Source: Eunapius fragilis (taxonomy: Eukaryota; Porifera; Demospongiae; Spongillida; Spongillidae). Taken from it: a stretch of 64,000 nucleotides of DNA. The notes under the pieces are model-generated. The model was not told the origin of the DNA. It saw only the letters and a program-made list of their open reading frames with translations, and made no database searches. The translations under genes and the position numbers were made by a program. Location of the stretch: assembly GCA_963681505.1 (NCBI GenBank), contig OY811986.1, positions 774,140 to 838,139 on the forward strand, written 5' to 3'. Every line of letters begins with the position of its first letter. Position 1 is the first letter of the stretch. Positions 6,001 through 61,788 of this stretch are shown here, piece after piece.

Positions 6001-8583
6001 TCAGATGTGATACCTTCATCAGGTGTGATACCTTCATCAGGTGTGGTACCTTCATCAGGTGTGATACCTTCATCAGGTGTGATACCTTCATCAGGTGTGA
6101 TACCTTCATCAGGTGTGGTACCTTCAGGTGTGGTACCTTCAGGTGCGATACCTTCATCAGGTGTGGTACCTTCATCAGGTGTAGTACCTTCATCAGGTGT
6201 GGTACCTTCATCAGGTGTAGTACCTTCATCAGGTGTGGTACCTTCATCAGGTGTGGTACCTTCATCAGGTGTGATACCTTCATCAGGTGTGGTACCTTCA
6301 TCAGGTGCGATACCTTCATCAGGTGTGATACCTTCATCAGGTGCAATACCTTCATCAGGTGTGATACCTTCATCAGGTGTGATACCTTCATCAGGTGTGG
6401 TACCTTCATTAGGTGCAATACATGACTGTAATGATATATATGTCATGGTCTCTTTGCTAACTGTAGGGTCACCAGTTCCTGTCAGGGGTATGGATGTTGG
6501 ACCACTGTTCCCATTCAGGGATGAAATTGTTTCTGGCCCCCTACACCTTGTTCCCTCCTCCCTTAGGGGTGCAGGAGTTGCTCCAATAGGTAGTGTCCAC
6601 ACTCACCCTCCCTCCTCCTCCTTTCTATTAATAACATGTCCATCAGAACAACCACCTCAGAGGATGATGTATCCGTCTATGTCCGGCACACCTCCTGTTG
6701 TTCACAGTGTCCCTCCTCACCTCTCGTATGATCGCTTGGCTTCAAGACAAGCATCTGTTCGCAGCTTGGGGGACAAAAGGTAATTAATGTTCAATGCAAT
6801 TGGCATCCAGCCTTGCAGCCCCACCCCCTTGTCATCCAGCCTTGCAGCCCCACCTCCCTGCCATCCAGCCTTGCAGCCCCACCTCCCTGCCATCCAGCCT
6901 TGCATGCCCCACCCCCTTGTCATCCAGCCTTGCAGCCCCACCCCCTTGTCATCCAGCCTTGCAGCCCCACCTCCCTGCCATCCAACCTTGCAGCCCCACC
7001 TCCCTGCCATCCAGCCTTGCCTGCCCCACCCCCTTGTCATCCAGCCTTGCAGCCCCACCTCCCTGCCATCCAGCCCATTTGACCTCACTACTCAACACTT
7101 GGTGATTACCATATAGGCTGAGGTTTTACATGTAGAAGACACACTTGGGTGTATACATGTTATTATTACTATAACTTGAATGGCACAACTCTCAGAACAC
7201 CCAGATATCACGACAGATCAAAATTGCCTCTGGTACTGGCTGACATTCAGATCCCCTTGACCAGAGAAACGTACAAAGACAAGTTCAACAAGCTTCTCTT
7301 CTGGGAGGAGGGTGAACACATGGTCATTCTGAGGGATAAGTAAGGACTGATCAGTGAAGATATGTCTGGCAGTGTGTGTGTGTATGTGTGTGTGCTCGTG
7401 TGTGTCGTTGTTAACATTCCAATTAATGCCCAGGTGTGATGGCCGCTACCTTCTGACTCTTCAGTCCAATCTCAGGTCAACATATCCCACCCAGAGGCAT
7501 GGAATTATAACGGAAATCAGTGGGGACACAGTAGCATACGCGATGCAGGCAAGTGAGGGTGCCACTGTGGTCATTGAGCAAGGAACCAAGGTCGCTGGAG
7601 GGCAGCTCCTTATTCAGGAGGATGTGAAGTTTGGCATTGAGTTGTCCTTCCAGAACTACGCAGAGACGGAAGAAAAACTTAGTGTTACCCTACCTGAGGA
7701 TAGCGTTGGTCTACTTCGTGCATATGGGATCTCTGAGGAACAGTTCTCTTTCAGAGTCAAAGTTCAATTTGAGCTTAAGCACTCTTATTTTGACGGTCTC
7801 CATAGGAGCGTTGATCAGTTGTCACCGGCAACCATTGCACGTGTGCTACCAAAAGAGTTTCCACCGTTCCTTAAGCAGGCATTGCCAAAAGAGCTAGACT
7901 CCTACACCCAGCTTTGTTCCCAGGACCAGAGGGATGCCCTCCAAACCATCCTCTCCCTCCCACCCAACAGTCCTCCATTGCTGGTCAGGGGAGCGTTTGG
8001 GACTGGCAAAACCTTCCTTTTGGCTGCGGCTGTCCACTGTCTGTTCCGGAATGAGAGGGGAGGAGGAGGGGGAGGAGCTGTGAGGGTGTTGGTGTGCACA
8101 CAGCAACACACATCAGCTGTTGCATTTCTTGAGTGCTTTCACAACAAGTTCAGCTTAGCAACCTCTGGTGGTGATGACCACCAGAGGTGCATAATTCGAC
8201 TGGTTCCTGACAGCAAAAGAGATGCAGGTTACAGCGAATACAGCAAAGTACTGACTGGTCAAGAACTTAAAAATGAAAAAGGAAATGTTTTGCGTTTCCC
8301 TCAGTTGCTAATGGTTACCACTGGTGGCACTTCGAGGCAGCTGTATAGCGTCTTCAGTGAAGACTTCTTCACACACATTCTGCTGGATGAAGGGGCTCAA
8401 CTGAGGGAACCAGAGGCTATGGCTCCCCTTCAGTTGAGCTGTCCTCGTACTAGAATCATTATATCTGGAGATGAGTATCAGGTTAGGCTGGGAAGGGGTA
8501 CATGGTTAACCAGGAGAGGCACAGTGGGTTGGGGGTTTTTTTTTTTGCATGCATAAGATTGCTAAGATTATTGACTGCTTCAT

Positions 8584-8623
<40 letters not shown>

Positions 8624-9697
8624 TGTGTGTGTGTGTTGTGTAGGTTGGCCCAAACCTTCTGGTGCTGGGTGAGGATGCAAGGGAGTGTGGCCTAAAGCTG
8701 TCTCTCCTTGAGCGGCTACACCACCACTACATAGCCTGCAATGCCTCCATGTACGAGGCCGTGCTGACCACCAACCATCGCTCACACCCGGACATCCTCG
8801 GCCTTGCAAACGCACTCTTCTACAAGTGCAACCTCAGGACTGCCGTTAACCCCGGCTGTTCCCATCCCTTGGCCCCATTCCCTCTGGTGTTTGTGTGCTC
8901 CTCTGCGGACATGTCAGCCTCGTTGGTGGAACCTAGTGTGGACAACCACGAAGCGATAGTATTGCTGGAGCGTGCACGTGTGTACGCCAACAGCTGGCCT
9001 GAGACCACATGGGGGAAGATAGACTACTCCCAGCTCTGTATCGTCAGCGTTGGGCGTGGCCAGGTACGTTTTGATTGGTGGAGCTCCTCGTGTGGTGGTG
9101 ATGATGATGGTGGTGTGTGTGTGTTTGCAGCTTTATAGGATAGCAAAGCTCTTGAGAGACAAGCAGCGCTTCCCTTCTGCCATGAACTATATTCAGCGAC
9201 AGCCAACCTATGATTTGCAAGGTGGGCACAGTTGATATACAGTATGCAATGATCTCCTAGAATATCCTCGAGTAGTTAGTTGACCATTTGTTTTGTTTTT
9301 TCTAACCAACTATTGAACTCATATGAAGCACACTATCCTTTTAGGTCGTCAGTTTCGTGCAGTGTTTGTGAGTACTTCAGAACCCACTGAAGTGCCCCCT
9401 GATGGTGGATCTCTGAGCCCCTCAAACCACACCAAGAGCATCTGTGACCCCTTTGTGTTCAACACCGTCATGACTCGTGCCCAGTCCTTGGTGGTGTGTG
9501 TGGGGAACCCCTTCCTGCTGCTCAGGCTGGAGCAGTCCATGGTGAGGAAGTATGGAGACAGGGGGAAGTGTTGGAGCCACTACCTCAAGGCCTGCCTCGA
9601 CCATAACACTGTTGATTGCAGCTCTGTGCAAAGTGAGCCATCTGTACTACTACAGAAACTTAGCGAGGCTGTTGCTAAGAATTGCATCGCTCCCTAA
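2..9697 (+). CDS. HELZ/HELZ2-like UPF1-family helicase (5' partial)
   Basis: Superfamily 1 RNA helicase, probably cytoplasmic and acting in RNA metabolism (family inference). Exons: 2-118, 217-273, 1174-1542, 2854-2985, 4052-4125, 4217-4285, 4797-4872, 5226-5298, 6467-6779, 7196-7339, 7434-8481, 8644-9063, 9131-9221, 9345-9697. They sum to 3336 nt with one open frame and a TAA stop. Numbered from the first codon here, Walker A GAFGTGKT is at about 661-668 and Walker B-type DEGAQ at about 793-797. GDEYQVGP spans the 8481/8644 junction, TTNHRSHP is motif IV and NTVMTRAQS is motif VI. The first exon is RGG-rich, typical of RNA binding, and exon 3 carries a 16-residue coding repeat. The motif set fits HELZ/HELZ2/MOV10; I favour HELZ-like. 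The core helicase is certain; joining the first two or three exons to it is less so. The true start lies left of the window. Confidence 0.85.
283..1095. repeat. 27-bp minisatellite in helicase intron
   Basis: About 30 tandem copies of a unit with core CTTGTAACCTCCACCC plus TTTGTGAGTGT, filling most of the 274-1173 intron. Variants swap TTTGTGAG for TTTTTGAG or TTTTTTAG. The period is a multiple of three, so long spurious frames appear on both strands. The array begins just after the real donor GTGAGT at 274, and most copies contain GTGAGT. Confidence 0.95.
1231..1424 (+). repeat. 48-bp coding minisatellite in helicase exon 3
   Basis: Four near-identical 48-bp copies inside exon 1174-1542 encode a 16-residue proline-rich repeat of the form PVPRPLSNTEARPLTS. 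Small changes are mostly T/A at one position and a truncated last copy. The period keeps the frame, so copy number can vary without breaking the protein. It lies in the poorly conserved N-terminal part, before the helicase core. Confidence 0.9.
1684..2830. repeat. 21-bp C/T-rich minisatellite with higher-order structure
   Basis: Tandem TCCCTCCTCATCCCTCCACCC-type units fill the intron 1543-2853. A larger block of about 250 bp, marked by the variant CACCACCCTCCCCCCTCATCC, recurs near 1850, 2105 and 2355, so the array has two levels of repetition. The strongly pyrimidine-rich top strand runs up to the acceptor at 2853. Long frames across it on both strands are artefacts. Confidence 0.95.
3110..3740. 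mobile_element. Two related non-autonomous (foldback) elements in intron
   Basis: The helicase intron 2986-4051 holds two diverged direct copies of a segment containing ATGGATAGTCCAATTT (near 3150 and 3602). A foldback at about 3193-3288 has arms containing GTGCACATTTTC and GCCTAAATCACTGG. A second inverted pair, CAGCAAAATCGCCCTT (near 3487) and AAGGGTGATTTTGCTG (near 3692), brackets the second copy. A fragment related to the latter (TTTTGCTGGGCACTGTCCCAT) lies near 16318. This suggests MITE-like insertions; no transposase is seen. Confidence 0.55.
4325..4600. repeat. 26-bp GGGTTAACTATAACC repeat followed by (CA)n
   Basis: Four to five copies of a unit containing GGGTTAACTATAACCTGAGC (4328-4450) are followed by an interrupted CA/CACATA tract (4450-4585), all within the helicase intron 4286-4796. 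No coding signal is seen here. Confidence 0.85.
4903..5205. repeat. 26-bp CTCCTCCCCATCTTCTTATT minisatellite
   Basis: About 12 copies of a pyrimidine-rich unit of 20-26 bp fill the helicase intron 4873-5225, ending just before the acceptor ATCAG at 5225. Copy lengths vary because the CTTCTTATT part is sometimes shortened. Confidence 0.9.
5329..6418. repeat. 18-bp minisatellite, about 60 copies
   Basis: Tandem CCTTCATCAGGTGTGATA units (variants GTGTGGTA, GTGCGATA, one CCTTCAGGTGTG deletion type) fill the helicase intron 5299-6466. The period is a multiple of three, so both strands are open for over 1 kb. Neither frame is a gene. Each unit contains CAG followed by GTGTGA, a weak donor-like match. 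Confidence 0.95.
6805..7078. repeat. 28-29-bp minisatellite in helicase intron
   Basis: About nine copies of a unit containing CCAGCCTTGCAGCCCCACC alternate between CCCTTGTCAT and TCCCTGCCAT versions. They fill the intron 6780-7195. Spurious open frames exist on both strands. Confidence 0.92.
8586..8641. repeat. (GT)n microsatellite before acceptor
   Basis: An almost pure GT run ends in GTGTTGTGTAG, which is the acceptor of the exon at 8644. The microsatellite therefore forms the acceptor tract. Confidence 0.95.
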
Positions 9698-47521: not shown

Positions 47522-50500
47522 TGTGTATATATGTGTGTATGCACATATGTGTGTGCATGAGTGTGTACGTGCATGTGTATGCATGTGTGTAGTTTGTATA
47601 TGCACATGTGTGTGCGTGTGAGTATATGTGCGCGCACGTGTGTGTGTGTGCGTGTGTGTGTGTGTGTGTGGGTATGTATATGTGCCTATATATGTGTGTT
47701 GTGTGCATGCAATATGTGTGCAGGATGAAGGGTGAATGGTCTACCTCCTGGCAACAGGTCTACCTATCGTCCACCCATGCTCACTGAGCTCAACTTGGAG
47801 AGGAGCACGTGGCAGTTGATTGGAGCACTTTATGGCGACAGGATTAACCATGAGCAGCATGATGACAGCGTTGAGGACATGGATCTGGTTGTATGTGCAG
47901 CCCCTCTTGTGTGCTTGGTTGGACTCCTTACTTGTGTCCGCCCTTTTAGTCCTCATCCAATTTGTCAGACAAGGAGGCAGCAAATAATTTATTTGAGCGA
48001 GACAGTTCTGTGCGCCAAGCCCAGGTAAGCTGCACTAGGGGGGAGGGGATGGTGTAGGGAAGGTAAGGTGGTGTAGGGAAGGTGGGGTGGTGTAGGGAAG
48101 GTGGGGTGGTGAGGGAAGGTGGGGTGGTGTAGGGAAGGTGGGGTGGTGTAGGGAAGGTGGGGTGGTGTAGGGAAGGTGGGGTGGTGTAGGGAAGGTGGGG
48201 TGGTGTAGGGAAGGTGGGGTGGTGTAGGGAAGGTGGGGTGGTGTAGGGAAGGTGGGGTGGTGTAGGGAAGGTGGGGTGGCGTAGGGAAGGGAGGGTGTAG
48301 GGAAGGGAGGGTGTAGGGAAGGGAGGGTGTAGGGAAGGGAGGGGTGGTGTAGGGAAGGGAGGGGTGGTGTAGGGAAGGTGGGGTGGTGTAGGGAGGAAGG
48401 CAGTGTAGGGAGGAAGGCAGTGTAGTGGAAACTGCAATAAATATTAAGTGGTCTTCACACATTGGGTGATATTGCTGGTGATTGCTGTATTTATTAGTTG
48501 GACCAAATAGGGGAATCACCCCTCATGTTTAATTGCTGGGGGCCTAAGGGATGGTGCCTCTGTCGTGGTCTGGGGAGGGAAGCTGATGAGAACAAAGTTA
48601 GGGATGTGTTATCTTTTGGACTTCACAGCTTGTGGTGGACTGGTTGGAGAAGAATGCTCTCTCCAATCTGGAGGAACACCCTTCCAAGATCAGCTATTTT
48701 GCAGATGCCATTACTTGGGATAACACCCACCACGACCTGCGTCACAACATTGGCACCAAGAACCTGGTCACCTCTTTGGTACGGACACCGTATATATCCC
48801 ATCGGTGGTGCCTGTGGTATTATGGAGCCCCCCCCCCCCCCACCATTTTAGGATGTTGATGCCCCCACACGAGAAGGGAAGCACCTTTCAGATCTGGATG
48901 AGAAAGATGAGCTGTCCTTCTCAAAGCACCTGTTTGCCTGCGTCTGTGCAGGGCAACTATCCAAGGTAGGAGGGAGGACCTCCAAGGTAGGAGGGAGGGA
49001 GGGCCTCAGTGAACATGGTGCAAAGTATGGGCACCAGTCTGCTATGTGCGCAAGTGCTAACTGGTATAATGATTTGTTGTATCTTGTGCTCATTTTCATT
49101 TGTGCTTTTAACACCCGTTTTGCATAAGACACAGGGGTAATTAGGCCAACCTTGGGGAAAAGCAGAAATATATATATACAGAGAGCCGGCGAAAGGTCTA
49201 AAATTCAACCCAGGCAAGAGGAAGGGTGCGAAGTAGGGGGAGGAGCGGGAGGGGGATGTGCCCCCTCCCGCGCTAAGCGTGGAAGCTTTTTAAGTATATG
49301 TAATTGATACATGAAACTAGGTTGTTTTTTTAAATAGATGTAATCTCCTACATCTTTCATTGTCAAAGGTAGCGTCAACATCTTTTCCACGGCTTCCTTA
49401 TGGCAGTCACTGGCCTTATGCTGGCGGAAAGCGCTGGTAGCTAACTTTCAGTTTGTAAACCCATGGGTAATGAAGGCTTTGTCAGCATTTTTAGTGCTCA
49501 ACTTGTGCTCCTTGAAAGCGTATTCGCATGTGTGCACAAGACACTATCGTCAGCTTCACAATAATGAAGCCATTTCCACGTTACAAACCATGCTGATTGA
49601 AAAGCACGTTGACTACTGCCAAAGTTACGCTTTGGGAAGGCAAAACTTGCAGGCTGGTTTGGTTGTTCTGAAATAACAATTTCGGACTTGTCGGATTCAT
49701 TTGTCACTTTCGACGCCATTGCAATCACGTGATTGGATGCTAACTAAACATAAATTTTATCACGAAGCGAATTACACATATATTAATTTATTAATTAATT
49801 TATTTTTTAAGCCCAAAAATCTACCCAGGCAATTGCCTGGGTTGCCTGCTGGGCTCCGCCGGCCATGATATATATATATATATATACGTTTGATTAAGCC
49901 CAGGCTAACTGCCCAGGAAGCTACGTTTTGGGGGGGGGGGGGGGGGGGGGGGGGGTGTTGCTGCAAGAAGGACCTAATGCATGTCTTTTCTTATTTGATA
50001 TTCTAAGGGTTACCCAGGTCCTAGACTATAACTTCTTTCTTATGCACTGGAAATTGGTCTGTCCATCATGTTACAATGAAGTTACAATGGCCTGAATTTT
50101 TACATGTATATTTCAATTACACGCATCAACTTTGGTGTTCCTTCATGAAAAATTCTGTAGTGTAAGCTTAGCATTAGATCATGTCAGTGATCCTCCCTAT
50201 ACACTTTGTTATAAATACTAGTAGGATGGGAGTAATGATATACTGATCAGCACCTGAGCAGCAGAAGTGGGGGTAGTTGACCCCAAGCAGTAGTTATCAA
50301 ATTTTTAAAAGTATGTTTTAATTCCGTTCTGAGATTTTAATGATCTATCCTATTTTCAGATTGAAAATATGTGCTAAGAGTTAGTTGAAGGTTCTTACTT
50401 GCATACCACGGATGCTGTAGTATGAAAGCCTTTGTAGCTCAGTGGCAGAGCACTGGTCTTGTAAACCAGGGGTCGGGAGTTCAATCCTCTCCGGAGGCAC

Positions 50501-53228
50501 TTTTTTTTTTTTTCAATTTCCCTGGCACAGGGTGTGGAATTTGATAATTAAATATCTCTAATTTATGCTTTCTCATCACAGGACAAATTACAGTATTAAA
50601 TGGTAGGAAGACCCCACACTGCAGGAAAAGTATTGTTTATGCCAGTTGAAATAAGTGCACAAATTGAGTTATACAAGGGAGTTTGTCACAAGAGTTATAC
50701 ATGGACCATATCAGACCGTGGTAGTTATAGCTAAGTCTGCAGACACTAATGCACGATTATCCCAATTGCAGCATAACCACATTTGTCTTGCAGTGCCTAG
50801 TATACGTACTTGTGAATCATTCTATTTTCCCTCCATGAATTCATTTGGACTAAGCACCCTCCATGAATGTATTTGGGATACTCTAGTAAAGGCCGACGTC
50901 GATACACGGGTCGACTTCCTGCCGATTTATCGCCTGCAACTCAAATGAATATGGGTGAAAATTCAGTAAACTTTTTTCAAATGAATATGGGTGAAAATTC
51001 AGTAAAATAAAAAGTTATACTGAATTTTCACCCATATTCATTTGAGTTGCAGGCGATAAATCGGCAGGAAGTCAACCCGTGTATGTCGGCCTTTACTGGG
51101 ATGCAAGACTAAGCACATAAGGGTCGTATGAGTACAACCTCACCATATATGGTATGGTATCCAGGACAATATAAATTAGTGCATTATGTGTCATGTTTGT
51201 TTACACTGCTTTGCATGTGACAATGAAAACCTCTGTACATCAAGAAATAAAGCAATTCTTCAAGTACATGAGAGTGTGGGGTAGCCCTTGTCCCTCTTGA
51301 AGAATAAGAGTGTGGGGTAGCCCTTGTCCCTCTTGAAGAATAAGAGTGTGGGGTAGCCCTTGTCCCTCTTGAAGAATAAGAGTGTGGGGTAGCCCTTGCC
51401 CCTCTTGAAGAATGAAATGCTTCTTAGCTGGGCACTGCTTATAGTAAAACGCCATTGGCACAGTGACTTGTGTGTGTTTGGGAGTTACTACACGCCTGTA
51501 AGCATTCTCTCATAGCGGAGAAAGTGCCGGTCTTTAAAACTTGAGGATGTATTCGCCTTTGTAGCTCAGTGGCAGAGCACTGGTCTTGTAAACCAGGGGT
51601 CGGGAGTTCAATCCTCTCCGGAGGCACTTTTTTCACACACACAAAAAAAAAAAAACTTTTTGTTCGCTCTCCCTTTGATGGCTTTTTTTTTTTGATCCGT
51701 AAGGGTTAAAGGTGGTGGCATTGTTTGAAGCTCCAATAGTTTTTTTTTTAACAATCCTTATGGAAAGGAGAAAAGAAAAAAGAAAGATTGTTATGACATT
51801 TAATGTTTTTATTGACACCATCGAGGAAGTAAACGTTAATGGCTTCTTAATGAATAACATTAAATTCATGCCCACAGTACCACAATGTGTAGAAATCTAC
51901 CAGCTATGTTGGCTGTAAAAATGAACATTGTGCAGCTTAATAATTAGTCAAAAATTTCAAGTTAACAGGGGGTACTTTTGAAATATTTATTCAATTGTCC
52001 CATGCTACCTGTCTATTGTATGGCAGGCTTAGCCTGACTTTGATGCGAGCCAACGCACGGGCACTCCTGTCTCGAGCAGGATCATCTGTGGAAGATCCGT
52101 AGAACTTATTGTATATTAGTCCTTTTGTTTGTAATGTATATGTGTAACAAGATTCTTCAATAATAATAATATTCAATTCGACCATAATTTTGTATCGCAT
52201 CCAAAATATTTTGATTCTACATGTATTGATACCTCTAAAATACAATATCTCGTCTTCTGCTTTTACACTGTCTGTTTGATTTTCAAGAATACCTTTCAGC
52301 CTCATTACTAGCGCCACCTTTAGAGTGTGTAAACAAACACTTCTTGCTAAAATAACCATAGTTTGCTTAGTGTTAGGTAAGGGCCCAGAGGCCGTACATT
52401 ACTGTTGTGTTTTCTGTGAATTTCATTAGTGGCCACTTGTTAACTATCGTGAATAATAGTCTTGCTCATTAGTATTCAACTCACTGAACTTAATACGAGA
52501 TGGTCTGTGGAAAATAATATGTCTAACCTATTTTTTTGACCCCACAGACACCTTTTAAAAAAGAGTGCATAATTTTTACTTTCTCGATGGTGTCGCGTAC
52601 TATAATATCACTGATATGAGACAATTGTAAATGGTCCTTTTTTAGGCTCAGGACCTGTGTGTTGAATGTGGTCAGCCATGGAAGGCAGCTGTATTAGAGG
52701 GATGGAAACTGTTCCACGACCCAAACAGGGGCAAGGGTGAGTTATGAAGTTGGATGGATGGGCATGGTGTAGTTAACATAAGGGTTACAGGCATGGTGTA
52801 GTTAACATAAGGGTTACAGGCATGGTGTAGTTAACATAAGGGTTACAGGCATGGTGTAGTTAACATAAGGGTTACAGGCATGGTGTAGTTAACATAAGGG
52901 TTACAGGCATGGTGTAGTTAACATAAGGGTTACAGGCATGGTGTAGTTAACATAAGGGTTACAGGCATGGTGACGTGCGTGTTAATTACTGAACTAATGG
53001 ACTAGTTAGGTATATATGTGACTTGCACAGTAGCAAAGCAGAGACTGCTGGAAAGGCATTCTTGCGGGTGTTGTTTGGGAGGTCCCCCCCCCCCTGCCCC
53101 GGCCAGTAACCTGCTCGTATTATCCTCAGGTGAGTATGATGAGGTGGTGCCTATTGAAGGTAATCTACAGAGAGCCAAGTGGAAGGTGTCTTGCTGGGAG
53201 ATGTTGAAGGATGTAAGTGCTTGTGTGT

Positions 53229-53310
<82 letters not shown>

Positions 53311-56300
53311 ATGTGTGTGCGTTGGGTGGTGAAGGCATGCATGTGTATTTGTGTGTAAGTGCTAGTCTGGGTGATGTGCATGTAAGTGAGAATGGCTATG
53401 CTAGTCTGTTGTGTGTGACAACTTGTGTGCTTATGTTAAACACATACAGGCAGAGTATGTGTAATCCTGTATGCATATGATGTATATATAGTCTGTACTG
53501 GGGGTGGGGTATATATAGTCTGTACTGGGGGGGGGGGGGGGGGGGGTATATATATAGTCTGTGTATATATAGTCTTTGCTGGGAGTGGGGTACATATAGT
53601 CTGTACTGGGAGTGAGGTATATATAGTCTATATTGGGGGTGGGGTATATATAAGTCTGTGCTGGGAGTGGGGTATATAAAGTCCTGGGGGTGGGGTATAT
53701 ATAGTCCTGGGGGTGGGGTATATATAATCTGTGCTGGGGGGTGGGGTAGGGTACATATTTGTATGTGCATGTATCCTCACTTCATACTCATGGGGGGGGG
53801 GGGGAGCTTCTTAACATCGGCCACCATCTGTTACCTTCTCTTCTCTCTCACTAGCCTGACTACAATGTATATGAAAAGGCTGTTTTCTCAGCTCTGTGTG
53901 GAAACTTGAGGCTTGTAAGTTGAACAGTCTCTTTTCTCACCACACACACACACACACATGTGTACAGGTTGTATGTATATGGGATCATTGCAGCGAAATG
54001 AGTCCTCGTGCATATTTTTTTCAAATTATTTGATATACTAAGAGATCTACAACTTTATTCTTACGTACTGGAAATTAGTCTGTCCATCATGGTTTTACAG
54101 TGGCCTGAATTTTTAATTACGCTTGCATTTTAATTGGACGCATCAACTTTGATGATCTTTCCTGGACAATTGTATTAGGTCCCTTTTCGCTGCCACAATC
54201 CCATATGTATGTACACATATGATTGTTATTGCTTTATTTAAAAAAAAAAAATTTTTTTACTGTGTTCATTTGATTCCGTTGGTATAATAGCATTTACCAC
54301 TCCCCAGCTGCTTCCAGCCTGTCAGTCATGGCTGGACTATACATGGGCCTACTTTAAGGTTATGGTGGATGTACTCACAGAGCAGGTGAGAGTGTTGTAC
54401 ACACACCTGCACATGCACACAAATGTGCATGCATGTACATACATGTACATACATGTACATACACATTCATGATTATAGTGTTCAATAACATCAGGTATCT
54501 AATTCAAAAGAAACTGTGCTGTGATAGTTATTGTCCCATTCTACTATTTTTAAGTGATGTAGTTAATCATTCATGGCTTAGGTTAGAATTACAATGGTGG
54601 AGTGTGTTGGAAAGGTCAGGAGTTACCCTGTTAAAGGTTTCGTCATTGGAATATTAATACATGTTAATCATGATACGAGTACTTAATAATTGTGCAGTAT
54701 GCATACTTATGAAGTAGTCATACCTTTGTTACCAGGCCAGGAAATTAAATATTAGCGTCTTTGTTCTAATCGTCTGTCAGTTTGGGCGTTTTGCTCATCA
54801 GTCAATGTGGACATAGATTTGCAGTGTGTTTCTGTTGGCTGCAGTTGTTAATGGCAGTGTGAACGGCAGTAGTGCTTAGAAACTGTTGGCCATTACTATT
54901 GACAAAAAAGGTGAATGAAGTCAAACCTTTTGTGCAGAACCTGCGTTCTGTTTCACGTGCTGAAGAAGAAGTGGAAGAACTACCTACAGAATACTGGAAT
55001 GTGCCGTGAGTGGCCATTATAGAATACTGGAACGTCCATTATACGTTCTATAGAATACTGGAGTGTCCAATATATTTCCTATAGAATACTGGAGTGTCCA
55101 TTATATGTCCTACAGAATACTGGTATATGTCCTATAGAATACTGGAGTGTCCAATATATGTCCTATAGAATACTGGAGTATCCATTATATGGTGGTCTTG
55201 CCAATTGCATTTTCGTTTGTGTGTGGATTTGTCGAGGGGGTTGGTTGAGGGAGAAATATTTTCATCACTTTATGTTCTGTTCAGTTTCACTTCAGAAGCA
55301 ATATTTCGGGAAATTGACGCCAGTCCATCCCAGGTGAATTATGAAAAATATTAGAAGGGTGGCATTGAATGGAGGTTTAATTTATACGCATCGTAATGTG
55401 TGTGTGTGGTCGAGATGAATGACAGCCAAGGATACATCTATCTAATAGTGATCACAAGTGTGTACCCTTCAGTTGATAGTGGTCACAAGTGTGTACCCTT
55501 CAGTGATCACAAGTATGTACCCTTTAGTGATCACAAGTGTGTACCCTTCAGTGATCACAAGTGTGTACCCTTCAGTGATCACAAGTGTGTACCCTTCAGT
55601 GGTCACAAGTGTGTACCCTTCAGTGGTCACAAGTGTGTACCCTTCAGTGATCACAAGTGTGTACCCTTCAGTGATCACAAGTGTGTACCCTTCAATGATC
55701 ACAAGTGTGTACCCTTCAGTGGTCACAAGTGTGTACCCTTCAGTGATCACAAGTGTGTACCCTTCAGTGGTCACAAGTGTGTACCCTTCAGTGATCACAA
55801 GTGTGTACCCTTCAGTGATCACAAGTGTGTACCCTTCAGTGATCACAAGTGTGTACCCTTCAGTTGATAGTGGTCACAAGTGTGTACCCTTCAGTGGTCA
55901 CAAGTGTGTACCCTTCAGTGGTCACAAGTGTGTACCCTTCAGTGGTCACAAGTGTGTACCCTTCAGTGGTCACAAGTGTGTACCCTTCAGTGATCACAAG
56001 TGTGTACCCTTCAGTTGATACAGAGGCAGCGACATGAACACTTCTATCAGGTGCAGAAGCTAGTCATTCTGAATGATCTGAAAGGTTTGCTACTTTGTGT
56101 GAAGTGAATTTTGATTACACTTCTCATGAGTGTGTTATTCTGGTTGGTGGGGGTTCAAGCCAGAGTGAGATGGCATACTGATATCTCCTTTCAGCTCTTG
56201 TTAATTTGGGGGGTGGGGGGGGGGGGGGGGGGTAAGGCATGACAGAGTGTAGATTTTGATTTTTAAATTGGTTCCTCTACACAATGCTGTAAATCTTATT

Positions 56301-59300
56301 TGTTTGAGCGTGATATTTTGTTTCGCAGTACCTATTCATCTTAATAATTTGATCCTATGTGTGCAAGGTTTCCTAATACGGATAGGGTGTTGGTATCCGG
56401 GCAGCGTTACATAAACATGTAAAGGAGAGAAAGTATTGTTTGCAGTGCAGTTGAAATATTAGTGATTGTTTCATTGTCACACACAGATGCTTGCCTACTC
56501 AGATAATAAATGGCTGCATTGCTTGAATAACTCTATGCACTTCTCAGTGTGCACAACTGTTGAGAAAACAGAAAGCAGCCATTGAAATAGAAGTAGTCTA
56601 ATTAACCCTTTTGCATGACTAACTGATGACCTCATAGCACTTCTGGAGGCATTCAAATTGAGTATCCTTTTAAAGGTCAAGTAATTGATAGGGTGATTAA
56701 GTGTGATTAAGTGGCTTCTAAATATTAATTTTCAGGGGTTAAAGAACTAAATCCAAGGGACGCCTGCTGATAAGCCACGTGTGTACTATCTTTTTGATTG
56801 GAGGATTGAGGTGGCTGGAGTCATAACTATCCTTTGTGGGATCCCTCTGCACACTGTGTGGGATCCCTTTTGTGGGATCTCTCTGCATACTGTGTGGGAT
56901 CCCTGTGGGGGATCCCTCTGCATACTGTGTGGGATCCCTGTGGGGGATCCATCTGCATACTGTGTGGGATCCTCAAAGGACCCCCCCAATGGTACCCAAA
57001 AATATGCACCTCTCTGTGGGCAGTTCCACTTGGACCTCACCAACCCTACATTAGTAAACCCTACAAGTTAATAAGAAGCGTTCTCTGAGGGAAAGGTGGT
57101 GTTATGTAGGGAAATAGTGGAATTCTCAATGTGACATTTATTACATTCTTCACTTCCAATCAAAGCGGTCCAGAGACACAGCTATTTGAATGAGGTGTAT
57201 GTGTTGCTAGTATCTTGAAGGGACAGCTGTTTGATGATGTTAGGTTTGATGGCTGTTTATTCTGACGTTAGGTCTGGTGTCCCTGATGCATAGCTGGGTG
57301 ACAGACAAGACCAAAACACTGACCATCCACCAGCTAAGGTTCCTGGTAAGGTGGTGTGGTGATTGGGGTGTGTGATTGGGGTGTGGTGGAGGTGATGTTG
57401 ACACATTGATGGTGTGATGGTGACGTTAATAGTTCCTTCATATTTGCAGTCACATCTTGTCATCTTCATCGCTGGGTTAGGATCGGAGGAAGTGGAGGTT
57501 TGCATTGGTTGGTGTGTGGTGCGTGTGAGTATCTGTATTTGTTGTGTTGTACAGGAAGAGAAGTGCACAGAGATACTGGAAGCCTTCGTGAAAGTATGTG
57601 AACACATCAATACGTGCACACGTGGTCCATCCATGATGTGCACACGTGTGGTCCATCCATGATGTGCACACGTGTGGTCCATCCATGATGTGCACACGTG
57701 TGGTCCATCCATGATGTGCACACGTGTGCGAACATCTGATGTGCACACGTGTGCGAACATCTGATGTGCACACGTGTGCGAACATCTCATGTGCACACGT
57801 GTGCGAACATCTCATGTGCATGTGTGTGTGTGCACTTCTCATATACACGCACATGTAAGGTGTTGTCACACACCAACTCATGGTGGTAGGGTTTCGCACT
57901 ATTTTGTCATCAATGTACCCATCCCCACATCTCCCCCATATCTTCCCATCCCACATCTCCCCCACATCTTCCCATCCCACATCTCCCCCACATCTTCCCA
58001 TCCACACATCTCCACATCTTCCCATCCCCACATCTCCCCACATCTTCCCATCTCCACATCTTCCCATCCCCACATCTCCCCCACATCTGCCAACACGTCT
58101 CCCTCCACCCCACCCGCCCAAGTCCCTCACACACAGTGGATACCACTCGCTTGTAGCCATCTATGCTGCCAGGGTTGGCTTTGATCGTCAGATCAAGTGC
58201 TATGCTGAACTTCTTGAAGGTAACCCTGTGACTACGGTAACCTGTAACCCTGTAACCCTGTGACTATGGTAACCTGTAACCCTGTAACCCTGTGGTAACC
58301 CTGTTACTATGATAACCCTATGGTAACCCTGTGACTATGGTAACCCAGTGACTGTGGTAAACAAGAATAGTTGTTTACAATAATGTGTTGCAGGGATCAA
58401 TGTTACAGAGGAGCAGAAGAGATGTTTGGACTTAGGGAAGGAAGCAGGTGTGTTGCTGATTAATAGCTGAACATACACTTGTATGGTCAACTACATCTTT
58501 GTGCCTCTTATCTTTGTGCCTCTTATCTGTCTCTGTCTCTACGGGCCTTTAAACTTAACCCTCTCCCTTCCAGGATTGGATATTGCAGCTATTACAAAGT
58601 CAGTTGTTGAGAACATTCGAAACATGGATCCAGTAAGTATACCCCCACAGTCATGATCCATTAAGTATATCCCCACAGTCATGATCCAGTAAGCATACCC
58701 CCACAGTCATGATCTAGTAAGTGTTCTCCCACACTCATGATCCAGTAAGCATACCCCCACAGTCATGATCCATTAAGTGTTCTCCCACACTCATGATCCA
58801 GTAAGCATACCCCCACGGTCATGATCCAGTAAGTATACCCCCACAGTCATGATCCAGTAAGTATACCCCCACAGTCATGATCCAGTAAGTATACCCCCAC
58901 AGTCATGATCCAGTAAGTATACCCCCACACTCATGATCCAGTAAGTATACCCCACACTCATGATCCAGTAAGTATACCCCCACAGTCATGATCCAGTAAG
59001 TATACCCCCACAGTCATGATCCAGTAAGTATACCCCCACACTCATGATCCAGTAAGTATACCCCCACAGTCATGATCCAGTAAGTATATCCCCACAGTCA
59101 TGATCCAGTAAGCATACCCCCACGGTCATGATCCAGTAAGTATACCCCCACAGTCATGATCCAGTAAGTATACCCCACAGTCATGATCCAGTAAGTATAC
59201 CCCCACAGTCATGATCCAGTAAGTATACCCCCACAGTCATGATCCAGTAAGTATACCCCCACAGTCATGATCCAGTAAGTATACCCCACACTCATGATCC

Positions 59301-60989
59301 AGTAAGTATACCCCCACACTCATGATCCGGTAAGCATACCCCCACAGTCATGATCCAGTAAGTATACCCCCACAGTCATGATCCAGTAAGTATACCCCAC
59401 ACTCATGATCCAGTAAGTATACCCCCACACTCATGATCCGGTAAGCATACCCCCACAGTCATGATCCAGTAAGTATACCCCCACAGTCATGATCCAGTAA
59501 GTATACCCCCACAGTCATGATCTAGTAAGCATACCCCCACAGTCATGATCCAGTAAGTATACCCCACAGTCATGATCCGGTAAGTATATCCCCACAGTCA
59601 TGATCCAGTAAGTATACCCCCACAGTCATGATCCAGTAAGCATATCCCCACAGGGATGATCCAGTAAGTATACCCTCACAGTCATGATCCAGTAAGTATA
59701 CCCCCACAGTCATGATCCAGTAAGTATACCCTCACAGTCATGATCCTGTAAGTATACCCTCACAGTCATGATCCAGTAAGTATACCCCCACACTCATGAT
59801 CCAGTAAGTATACCCCACACTCATGATCCAGTAAGTATACCCCCACAGTCATGATCCAGTAAGTATACCCCCACAGTCATGATCCAGTAAGTATACCCCC
59901 ACACTCATGATCCAGTAAGTATACCCCCACAGTCATGATCCAGTAAGTATATCCCCACAGTCATGATCCAGTAAGCATACCCCCACGGTCATGATCCAGT
60001 AAGTATACCCCCACAGTCATGATCCAGTAAGTATACCCCACAGTCATGATCCAGTAAGTATACCCCCACAGTCATGATCCAGTAAGTATACCCCCACAGT
60101 CATGATCCAGTAAGTATACCCCCACACTCATGATCCAGTAAGTATACCCCACACTCATGATCCAGTAAGTATACCCCCACAGTCATGATCCAGTAAGTAT
60201 ACCCCCACAGTCATGATCCAGTAAGTATACCCCCACACTCATGATCCAGTAAGTATACCCCCACAGTCATGATCCAGTAAGTATATCCCCACAGTCATGA
60301 TCCAGTAAGCATACCCCCACGGTCATGATCCAGTAAGTATACCCCCACAGTCATGATCCAGTAAGTATACCCCACAGTCATGATCCAGTAAGTATACCCC
60401 CACAGTCATGATCCAGTAAGTATACCCCCACAGTCATGATCCAGTAAGTATACCCCCACAGTCATGATCCAGTAAGTATACCCCACACTCATGATCCAGT
60501 AAGTATACCCCCACACTCATGATCCGGTAAGCATACCCCCACAGTCATGATCCAGTAAGTATACCCCACACTCATGATCCAGTAAGTATACCCCCACACT
60601 CATGATCCGGTAAGCATACCCCCACAGTCATGATCCAGTAAGTATACCCCCACAGTCATGATCCAGTAAGTATACCCCCACAGTCATGATCTAGTAAGCA
60701 TACCCCCACAGTCATGATCCAGTAAACATACCCCCACACTCATAGCATACCCCCACAGTCATGATCCAGTAAGTATACCCCACAGTCATGATCCATTAAG
60801 CATACCCCCACACTCATAGCATACCCCCACAGTCATGATCCAGTAAGTATACCTAGGATAGTGTATGTAGTGGGAGTACTGAGACTATTCCTACCTCTTC
60901 CTCATTGATTGGCTTTGTGGGAGGGGGAGAGAAGTGGTGCCTGCTTGTGTGTGTGTGTATGTGTGTGTGTGTGTATGTGTGTGATGTGT

Positions 60990-61023
<34 letters not shown>

Positions 61024-61788
61024 CTATATGTGTGTGATGTGTGTGTATGTGTGTGTGGTGTGTGTATGTGTGTGGTGTGAGTGTTAAGTCGCTCACGTAT
61101 TGGGTGTGGACCCTGTTCATAGTTGCAGGCATTATAATACAATGATCTCAACCTTCCCATGTGACTGTCCATCAAAATGTGGTAACTGCAAGGGTTTAAA
61201 CATAAAGTATAATTTACATACCTTGTGGAACAAGATAGCAATAGCCTTATGTCCAACTTTGAAAACCAGTCCTGTGTTTGACCACAGGTATGATCTGATT
61301 GGTGGTACTGTGTTACCATTGGCGATTAGCCTGGCTGCATACATGTGCTATGGGCCACATAAAGGTGTGCTGTGTCCTTAATTGGGCTTCCAGGGGGTTA
61401 ATGTAGTGCGGTGCAGTTTAGCAGGTGGCCCACTTTATTAGAGGGTCAACTTAGAGGAAGGGAGGGGATGGGGAGGAGGGATGTGGGGAAGGAAGGAGGT
61501 GGGGAGGAGGGTGTCGGAAGACATGAATACTTCTGAATGGCTTCCTGCAATGTTTAGAGGCTCAGTCAAGTATGAGATGTGTTTCCACACATAGTGTAGT
61601 ATGTTGGAATGTGTACATGTGTGTAGGAAGCTATGTATCCCATTTGTGTGTGTGTTGGGTATGGTGTGCTTCTATGCAGGAAGAAGCTGGTGATGCCTGT
61701 GCATTAGAGCTGGGCAGAGAGGTGGAAATCACCAAGGTAACGTGTGTGGACCTTGAACAACCATCCCGCCTTCATCCTGAATGTGTTC

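What the first reader, a model, noticed from the sequence alone, without database searches (positions are those of the whole stretch)
58574..60852. Splice donor of a NUP107 exon amplified about 79 times as a 28-bp minisatellite
The repeat unit contains the last bases of the coding exon (GATCCA) and its donor GTAAGTAT. Each unit also ends CCCCCACAG, which looks like an acceptor. The spliceosome would face dozens of equivalent donors in a row. This could act as a buffer, delay splicing, give tiny in-array introns (recursive or nested splicing of 28-nt multiples), or be neutral. The block-wise recurrence of variants shows recent unequal exchange.
Basis: partly seen in the sequence, partly recalled or inferred. 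Interest (0 to 1): 0.8.

Follow-up and report, generated by a model that had tools for sequence, protein, structure and literature searches.

The report
Splice donor repeated in NUP107 intron
In an animal genome, probably a sponge's, the end of one NUP107 exon and its splice signal have been copied about 79 times in a row into the next intron, an accident of DNA copying that has close counterparts in human genes and lancelets.

Summary
Intron 58633-61679 of a NUP107 gene begins with 79 head-to-tail donor-bearing units (28 or 27 bp, two of 47). The array starts 6 bases inside the exon, and 76 of 79 units keep a GT donor, 62 of them GTAAGT. The exon chain on both sides is open and human-like, so the array is intronic.

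Only donor 1 can give NUP107: extension to any of the 78 later units meets an in-frame stop. Identical blocks of 18 units (501 bp, two copies) and 12 units (three copies) show recent large exchange.

Most likely it is a near-neutral minisatellite seeded on the donor, tolerated because the exon-proximal copy is used. It is a known kind: human ABCA7 has a 25-bp VNTR whose first GT is the exon-18 donor, with measured splicing effects; human CBS has one across exon and intron; lancelets have "mirages".

Open lead: arrays start within 25 nt of the donor in 17 of 32 array-bearing introns, against 8.5 expected; post hoc, and a tiny repeat gave 0 of 2. No RNA or read data were available.

The parts
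58574..58632 (+). NUP107 exon (e16 of this model), coding [19 protein letters not shown], ends in phase 0 at CCA|GTAAGT
   Evidence: Joined with its neighbours it aligns to human NUP107 591-700, E 4.3e-22; 20-exon chain open
58627..60853 (+). Minisatellite of 79 donor-bearing units, 28/27/47 bp, starting 6 bases inside the exon
58633..58640 (+). Donor 1 (GTAAGTAT), the only one that keeps the NUP107 frame
   Evidence: extension to each of the 78 later units holds an in-frame stop
58633..61679 (+). Host intron, 3047 nt, of which 2271 nt tandem repeat
61680..61736 (+). Next exon e17, 57 nt, phase 0 on both sides: skipping it would be in frame (19 codons)
58857..59357 (+). 18-unit block (units 9-26), identical to 60054-60554 (units 52-69)
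60054..60554 (+). Second copy of the 18-unit block
48960..48996 (+). Another donor-spanning duplication in the gene: TCCAAG|GTAGGAGGGA at exon e4 and again, exactly, at 48981-48996 in the intron
   Evidence: 16 of 16 bases
54983..55191 (+). Exon e9 tail CCTACAGAATACTGGAATGTG, repeated (19 of 21 bases) in the array at the start of its own intron
   Evidence: 1/401 against stretches of other introns
58220..58360 (+). Arrays starting on the first intron base after exon e14 (AAG|GTAACCCTGTGACTA)
55478..56015 (+). 24-bp array, 22 copies, ending at the acceptor of exon e10 (CCCTTCAG|TTGATA)

Best explanation
A single-locus intronic minisatellite whose founding unit straddled the donor of NUP107 exon e16. 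Shown: the array begins 6 bases inside the exon, has 79 units, 76 with GT, and was homogenised and enlarged in blocks of up to 18 units. Inferred: it grew by slippage and unequal exchange; the spliceosome uses the exon-proximal donor and removes the other 78 units as intron; use of any later donor, or of an in-array micro-exon, gives a stop and is lost. So the array is close to neutral. By analogy with human ABCA7, the expected side products are a few percent of donor-2-like use (here the next live donor, since unit 2 reads TTAAGT) and in-frame skipping of the next exon (e17, 57 nt) that rises with array length.
For: Unit 1 is phase-locked to the exon end and the array is a single locus. The exon chain, covering roughly residues 208-730 of human NUP107, is open and human-like, with the array in an intron. 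Extension to any of the 78 later units meets a TGA at the eighth codon after the exon. Units 1-10 differ from the consensus by 1.6 bases on average, 28-bp units among 11-70 by 0.71, and identical 12- and 18-unit blocks recur, ordinary marks of minisatellite turnover. Tandem repeats fill about 41% of the 48 introns measured (9444 of 22762 nt), so the setting is repeat-prone. ABCA7: first GT of a 25-bp VNTR of about 12-427 units is the exon-18 donor; one-unit retention about 2%, exon-19 skipping 12-45% by tissue and rising with length. Lancelet mirages are reported not to disturb regular splicing.
Against: No RNA or read data, so donor-1 use, splicing efficiency and neutrality are inferred. RNA of four units folds better than shuffles (z -3.83, 0 of 200 as good; 301 nt at the left edge z -2.93, 0 of 100), with GUAUAC of the donor paired unit to unit, so some effect on splicing is possible; the same four units as DNA do not stand out (z -1.32, 23 of 200 as good). 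Five of the six units next to donor 1 (units 2-7) have a weak or dead donor, against 17 of 79 overall; three of the last five units do too, so edge decay explains it, but selection against near competitors is not excluded.
Confidence: 0.72

Rival explanations
1. Length-dependent splicing rheostat: dozens of U1-binding donors compete for or hold U1, slowing removal of this intron and causing skipping of e17 or poison transcripts, so array length tunes NUP107 output.
For: 62 GTAAGT donors in 2.2 kb; exon skipping rises with array length in ABCA7; more copies go with lower CBS activity (passage of a review); e17 is in frame on both sides; weak donors in units 2-7.
Against: No expression data; the weak donors near donor 1 are matched by weak ones at the far edge; NUP107 is presumably essential (recalled), so strong loss would be selected against.
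Confidence: 0.13
2. Nested splicing: in-array donor-acceptor pairs remove stretches of 18 + 28n nt before the final joining of donor 1 to e17.
For: 55 of 79 units carry CACAG; a donor to the acceptor of the next unit is 46 nt, near the shortest introns seen (50-56 nt), and larger spans are available.
Against: The run before CACAG is short and no branch site was looked for; there is no AG|GT junction in the unit for zero-length recursive splicing; any retained 10-nt micro-exon gives a stop.
Confidence: 0.07
3. The copy number is an assembly artefact; the true array is much shorter or longer.
For: Identical blocks of 334 and 501 bp are what assemblers collapse or duplicate.
Against: No Ns in the window; 20 unit types in an ordered pattern; long arrays are common in the window. 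Reads could not be seen.
Confidence: 0.06

Closest known systems
ABCA7 intron-18 VNTR, human (PMC5954066; passages and one section read)
   Same: Array starts on the donor of a coding exon, 25-bp unit, dozens of donor copies, use of the second donor breaks the frame, skipping of the next exon is in frame
   Different: Unrelated gene; there the repeat begins at the GT, here it includes 6 exon bases; ABCA7 has measured polymorphism (about 12-427 units) and splicing effects
CBS 31-bp VNTR, c.1444_1467+7, human (PMC2630376 passages)
   Same: Unit made of exon tail plus the start of the intron
   Different: 16-21 copies; unit mostly exonic (24 exon + 7 intron bases, read from its name)
Lancelet mirages: Adh3, globins, TnC, and the imperfect PGBD5 repeats (PMC3087553 and PMC3902484 passages; the 2002 Adh paper not held)
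   Same: Tandem repeats spanning exon-intron boundaries, several in one genome; Adh3 units 10-72 bp
   Different: Other animal group (inferred); in globin BflGb6 the copies are few (3 or 6 units) and long (150-160 bp)

Membership tests
Minisatellite / VNTR | Head-to-tail units of 10-100 bp at one locus | tested here: met
Minisatellite / VNTR | Length differs between individuals | not testable with these tools
   one assembly only
Donor-bearing VNTR (ABCA7 type) | First unit holds the canonical donor of a coding exon | tested here: met
   By homology and reading frame, not by RNA
Donor-bearing VNTR (ABCA7 type) | Array length changes splicing of neighbouring exons | not testable with these tools
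   no RNA data
Mirage | Repeat unit spans the exon-intron boundary | tested here: met
   6 exon bases GATCCA in the consensus unit
Mirage | Lancelet host (all reported cases that I saw) | tested here: inconclusive
   18 homeodomain matches (30 candidates), 219 Mb in 24 contigs: sponge-like by recalled homeobox counts; no tool names the species
Mirage | Regular splicing of the mRNA is kept | not testable with these tools
   no RNA data
Intron gain from tandem duplication (Rogers model) | Both intron borders derive from one duplicated segment | tested here: not met
   Intron e16 is not among the six of 55 introns whose donor and acceptor windows are most alike

The most novel reading that the evidence does not exclude
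In this genome intronic minisatellites preferentially start beside the 5' splice site, so that exon ends and donors are now and then caught in the array; the 79-donor NUP107 array would be the extreme case of a process tied to donors (for instance to U1 or R-loop edges), and a source of expanding introns.
Probability: 0.2. Interest if true: 0.6.

Novelty: new member of a known kind. Interest (0 to 1): 0.38.

Why it matters
It adds a large (79-copy) donor array in a housekeeping gene of what is probably a sponge to a short list from human and lancelet. It is a natural test of how the spliceosome chooses among dozens of nearly equal donors and of whether array length drives skipping of the next exon, as in ABCA7. 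If arrays really favour donors, it would tie minisatellite birth to splice sites.

Tried and rejected
Donor motifs are not enriched in minisatellite units: 35 of 123 arrays (filtered from 252 in 284 kb) reach score 6, against 36.6 (sd 4.0) in shuffles; at thresholds 5, 7, 8 and 9 it is 60, 23, 9 and 3 against 56.5, 20.8, 12.0 and 5.2. Splice-site windows of NUP107 are not more often repeated nearby than other intron positions: 4 of 20 donors and 1 of 19 acceptors score 26 or more, against 40.5% (forward) and 46.5% (backward) of 1500 random intron positions each and 52.8% of 800 intronic GTs; the rank tests put splice sites lower (P 0.02 and 0.003). The exonic half of the window may explain the deficit.

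Exon tails of 25 nt repeated in their own intron: 2 of 56 at P<0.01 (e6, e9); exon heads 0 of 55. e16 is not among them because only 6 exon bases are shared.

Triple-donor patterns in 329 kb held: GTAAGT 2 places against 3 for the reversed motif, GTGAGT 4 against 6, AGGTAA 4 against 3, AGGTAAG 3 against 1, AGGTGA 15 against 1, AGGTGAG 5 against 0. Mixed: the AGGTGA excess may only reflect G-rich repeats. The genome-wide form of this search did not complete.

A codon-usage exon finder was too weak (5 of 20 NUP107 exons) and was dropped; its stretches were only listed. A likeness of the two borders of intron e5 (52737-53129), first read as intron gain, is not significant: 15 of 2970 mismatched pairs score as high, and 55 introns were looked at.

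Rejected: array outside the transcript; array as a dispersed repeat.

Full report
What is there. The window is bases 774140-838139 of contig 16 of a 219-Mb genome in 24 contigs. From 58633 on, 79 units follow each other, most of 28 bp, 12 of 27 and two of 47, in 20 types. The first unit begins directly after exon bases ...ATGGATCCA, and GATCCA (with variants) closes the consensus unit, so the array starts 6 bases inside the exon (TRF 58627-60853). The 14-mer GATCCAGTAAGTAT occurs 59 times in the genome, all here, and its backward control 0 times. An 84-base piece gave 32 matches, all here. The copies are thus one locus, as far as these searches reach, not a dispersed family.

The gene. Peptides of five consecutive exons around the array align as one stretch to human NUP107 residues 591-700 (E 4.3e-22). 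After one acceptor was moved to keep the frame (e14), the chain translates without a stop. The Pfam family Nup84_Nup100 has three matches in the genome, all in this gene. Exon e16 (58574-58632) ends in phase 0 after D-P. The D lines up with human KKD, which suggests that the exon end is old and the array derives from it. The reverse is not formally excluded.

What the extra donors could do. Of 79 donors, 62 are GTAAGT, 13 GTAAGC, 1 GTAAAC and 3 are dead (TTAAG). Reading on from the exon gives VSIPPQS-stop, so extension to any of the 78 later units yields a premature stop, and a 10-nt micro-exon between an in-array CACAG and the next donor also gives a stop. CACAG is in 55 of 79 units. Only donor 1 makes NUP107. 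The next exon, e17, has 57 nt and phase 0 on both sides, so skipping it would stay in frame. RNA of four interior units folds better than all 200 shuffles (z -3.83), through GUAUAC and UCAUGA pairing unit to unit; 301 nt at the left edge give z -2.93; as DNA the four units do not stand out (z -1.32).

How it grew. Units 9-26 and 52-69 are identical over 18 units (501 bp), and a 12-unit block of 334 bp stands three times (units 11-22, 42-53, 54-65). Units 1-10 differ from the consensus by 1.6 bases on average, 28-bp units among 11-70 by 0.71. This is the usual picture of recent block exchange inside and decay at the edges. Five of units 2-7 and three of units 75-79 have a weak or dead donor, against 17 of 79 overall. 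Edge decay covers both ends, so this is no proof of selection against competitors of donor 1, nor does it exclude it.

Is it general here? In 48 introns (19 of NUP107 and 29 of six myosin genes; 4 of 33 myosin introns with a negative score were dropped, and 8 of the 29 kept have a stop in the joined matches, so their borders are less sure) tandem repeats make up 9444 of 22762 nt. Other boundary repeats in NUP107 are an exact 16-base donor duplication at intron e4, a repeated exon tail at e9 (19 of 21 bases), arrays starting on the first base of intron e14, and a 24-bp array ending at the acceptor of e10. Among 32 introns with arrays, the first array starts within 25 nt of the donor in 17, against 8.5 expected when the same arrays are placed at random (0 of 5000 reach it); within 10 nt it is 7 against 3.8 (P 0.07). 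At the acceptor it is 11 against 8.5 (P 0.17) within 25 nt and 5 against 3.7 (P 0.31) within 10. The idea came from looking at the same offsets, so this is post hoc. In two further myosin genes (7 introns, one more dropped for its score) 0 of 2 introns with minisatellites fit. Other tests gave no general link of arrays and donors or mixed results.

Which organism. Not named by any tool. Only 18 homeodomain matches (30 candidates), five of them within 110 kb on contig 16, fit a sponge rather than a lancelet. This rests on recalled homeobox counts.

What is known. A 25-bp VNTR in human ABCA7 starts with the exon-18 donor; alleles have about 12 to 427 units. One-unit retention is about 2%, a cryptic acceptor about 14%, and exon-19 skipping 12-45% by tissue; only skipping rises with array length (PMC5954066, passages and section 21). 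The human CBS VNTR c.1444_1467+7 has 16-21 copies; its name implies 24 exon and 7 intron bases (PMC2630376 passages); a review states that more copies go with lower CBS activity (PMC5188458 passage). Lancelet mirages span exon-intron boundaries in Adh3, globin and TnC genes, with imperfect relatives in PGBD5, and are reported not to disturb regular splicing, though some copies carry usable signals (PMC3087553 and PMC3902484 passages); the 2002 Adh paper was not held. A search for sponge, genome, introns, tandem repeats and minisatellite with at least four terms listed 15 of 406 papers, none of which by title or abstract start described such arrays in sponges. That is no proof of absence.

Verdict. 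The best account is a near-neutral minisatellite seeded on a donor, with donor 1 in use (0.72). Its value is as a natural experiment in donor choice, and as a pointer to a possible donor bias of array birth, which is unproven.

Noticed in passing
window 7230-9679 and L010 6467-9446: Neighbouring paralogous helicase genes on the same strand (PF13086 in the window copy); a block near the end, around window 9350-9600, is nearly identical at the protein level, the rest far less (37% in the long exon).
   Followed up: partly
L010 548-6406: A 5.9-kb array, period 76, about 78 copies, just upstream of the window.
   Followed up: no
window 1-64000: Tandem repeats cover 32% of the window, more than in 19 of the 20 random 10-kb stretches (L019 has 55%); the neighbour L010 has 63%.
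   Followed up: partly
window 52737-53129: Donor and acceptor of NUP107 intron e5 share GGTGAG(T)TATGA; suggestive of origin by duplication but not significant after counting introns.
   Followed up: yes
L026, minus strand: A KIF11-like kinesin gene; an insert of 22 codons (66 nt), probably an intron, is read through inside the match.
   Followed up: no
L027, minus strand: Coding-like stretches resembling a gypsy-type retroelement (by eye, not searched).
   Followed up: no
genome C16:2877845-2986789: Five homeodomain matches within 110 kb, perhaps an NK-type cluster (the name is recalled).
   Followed up: no
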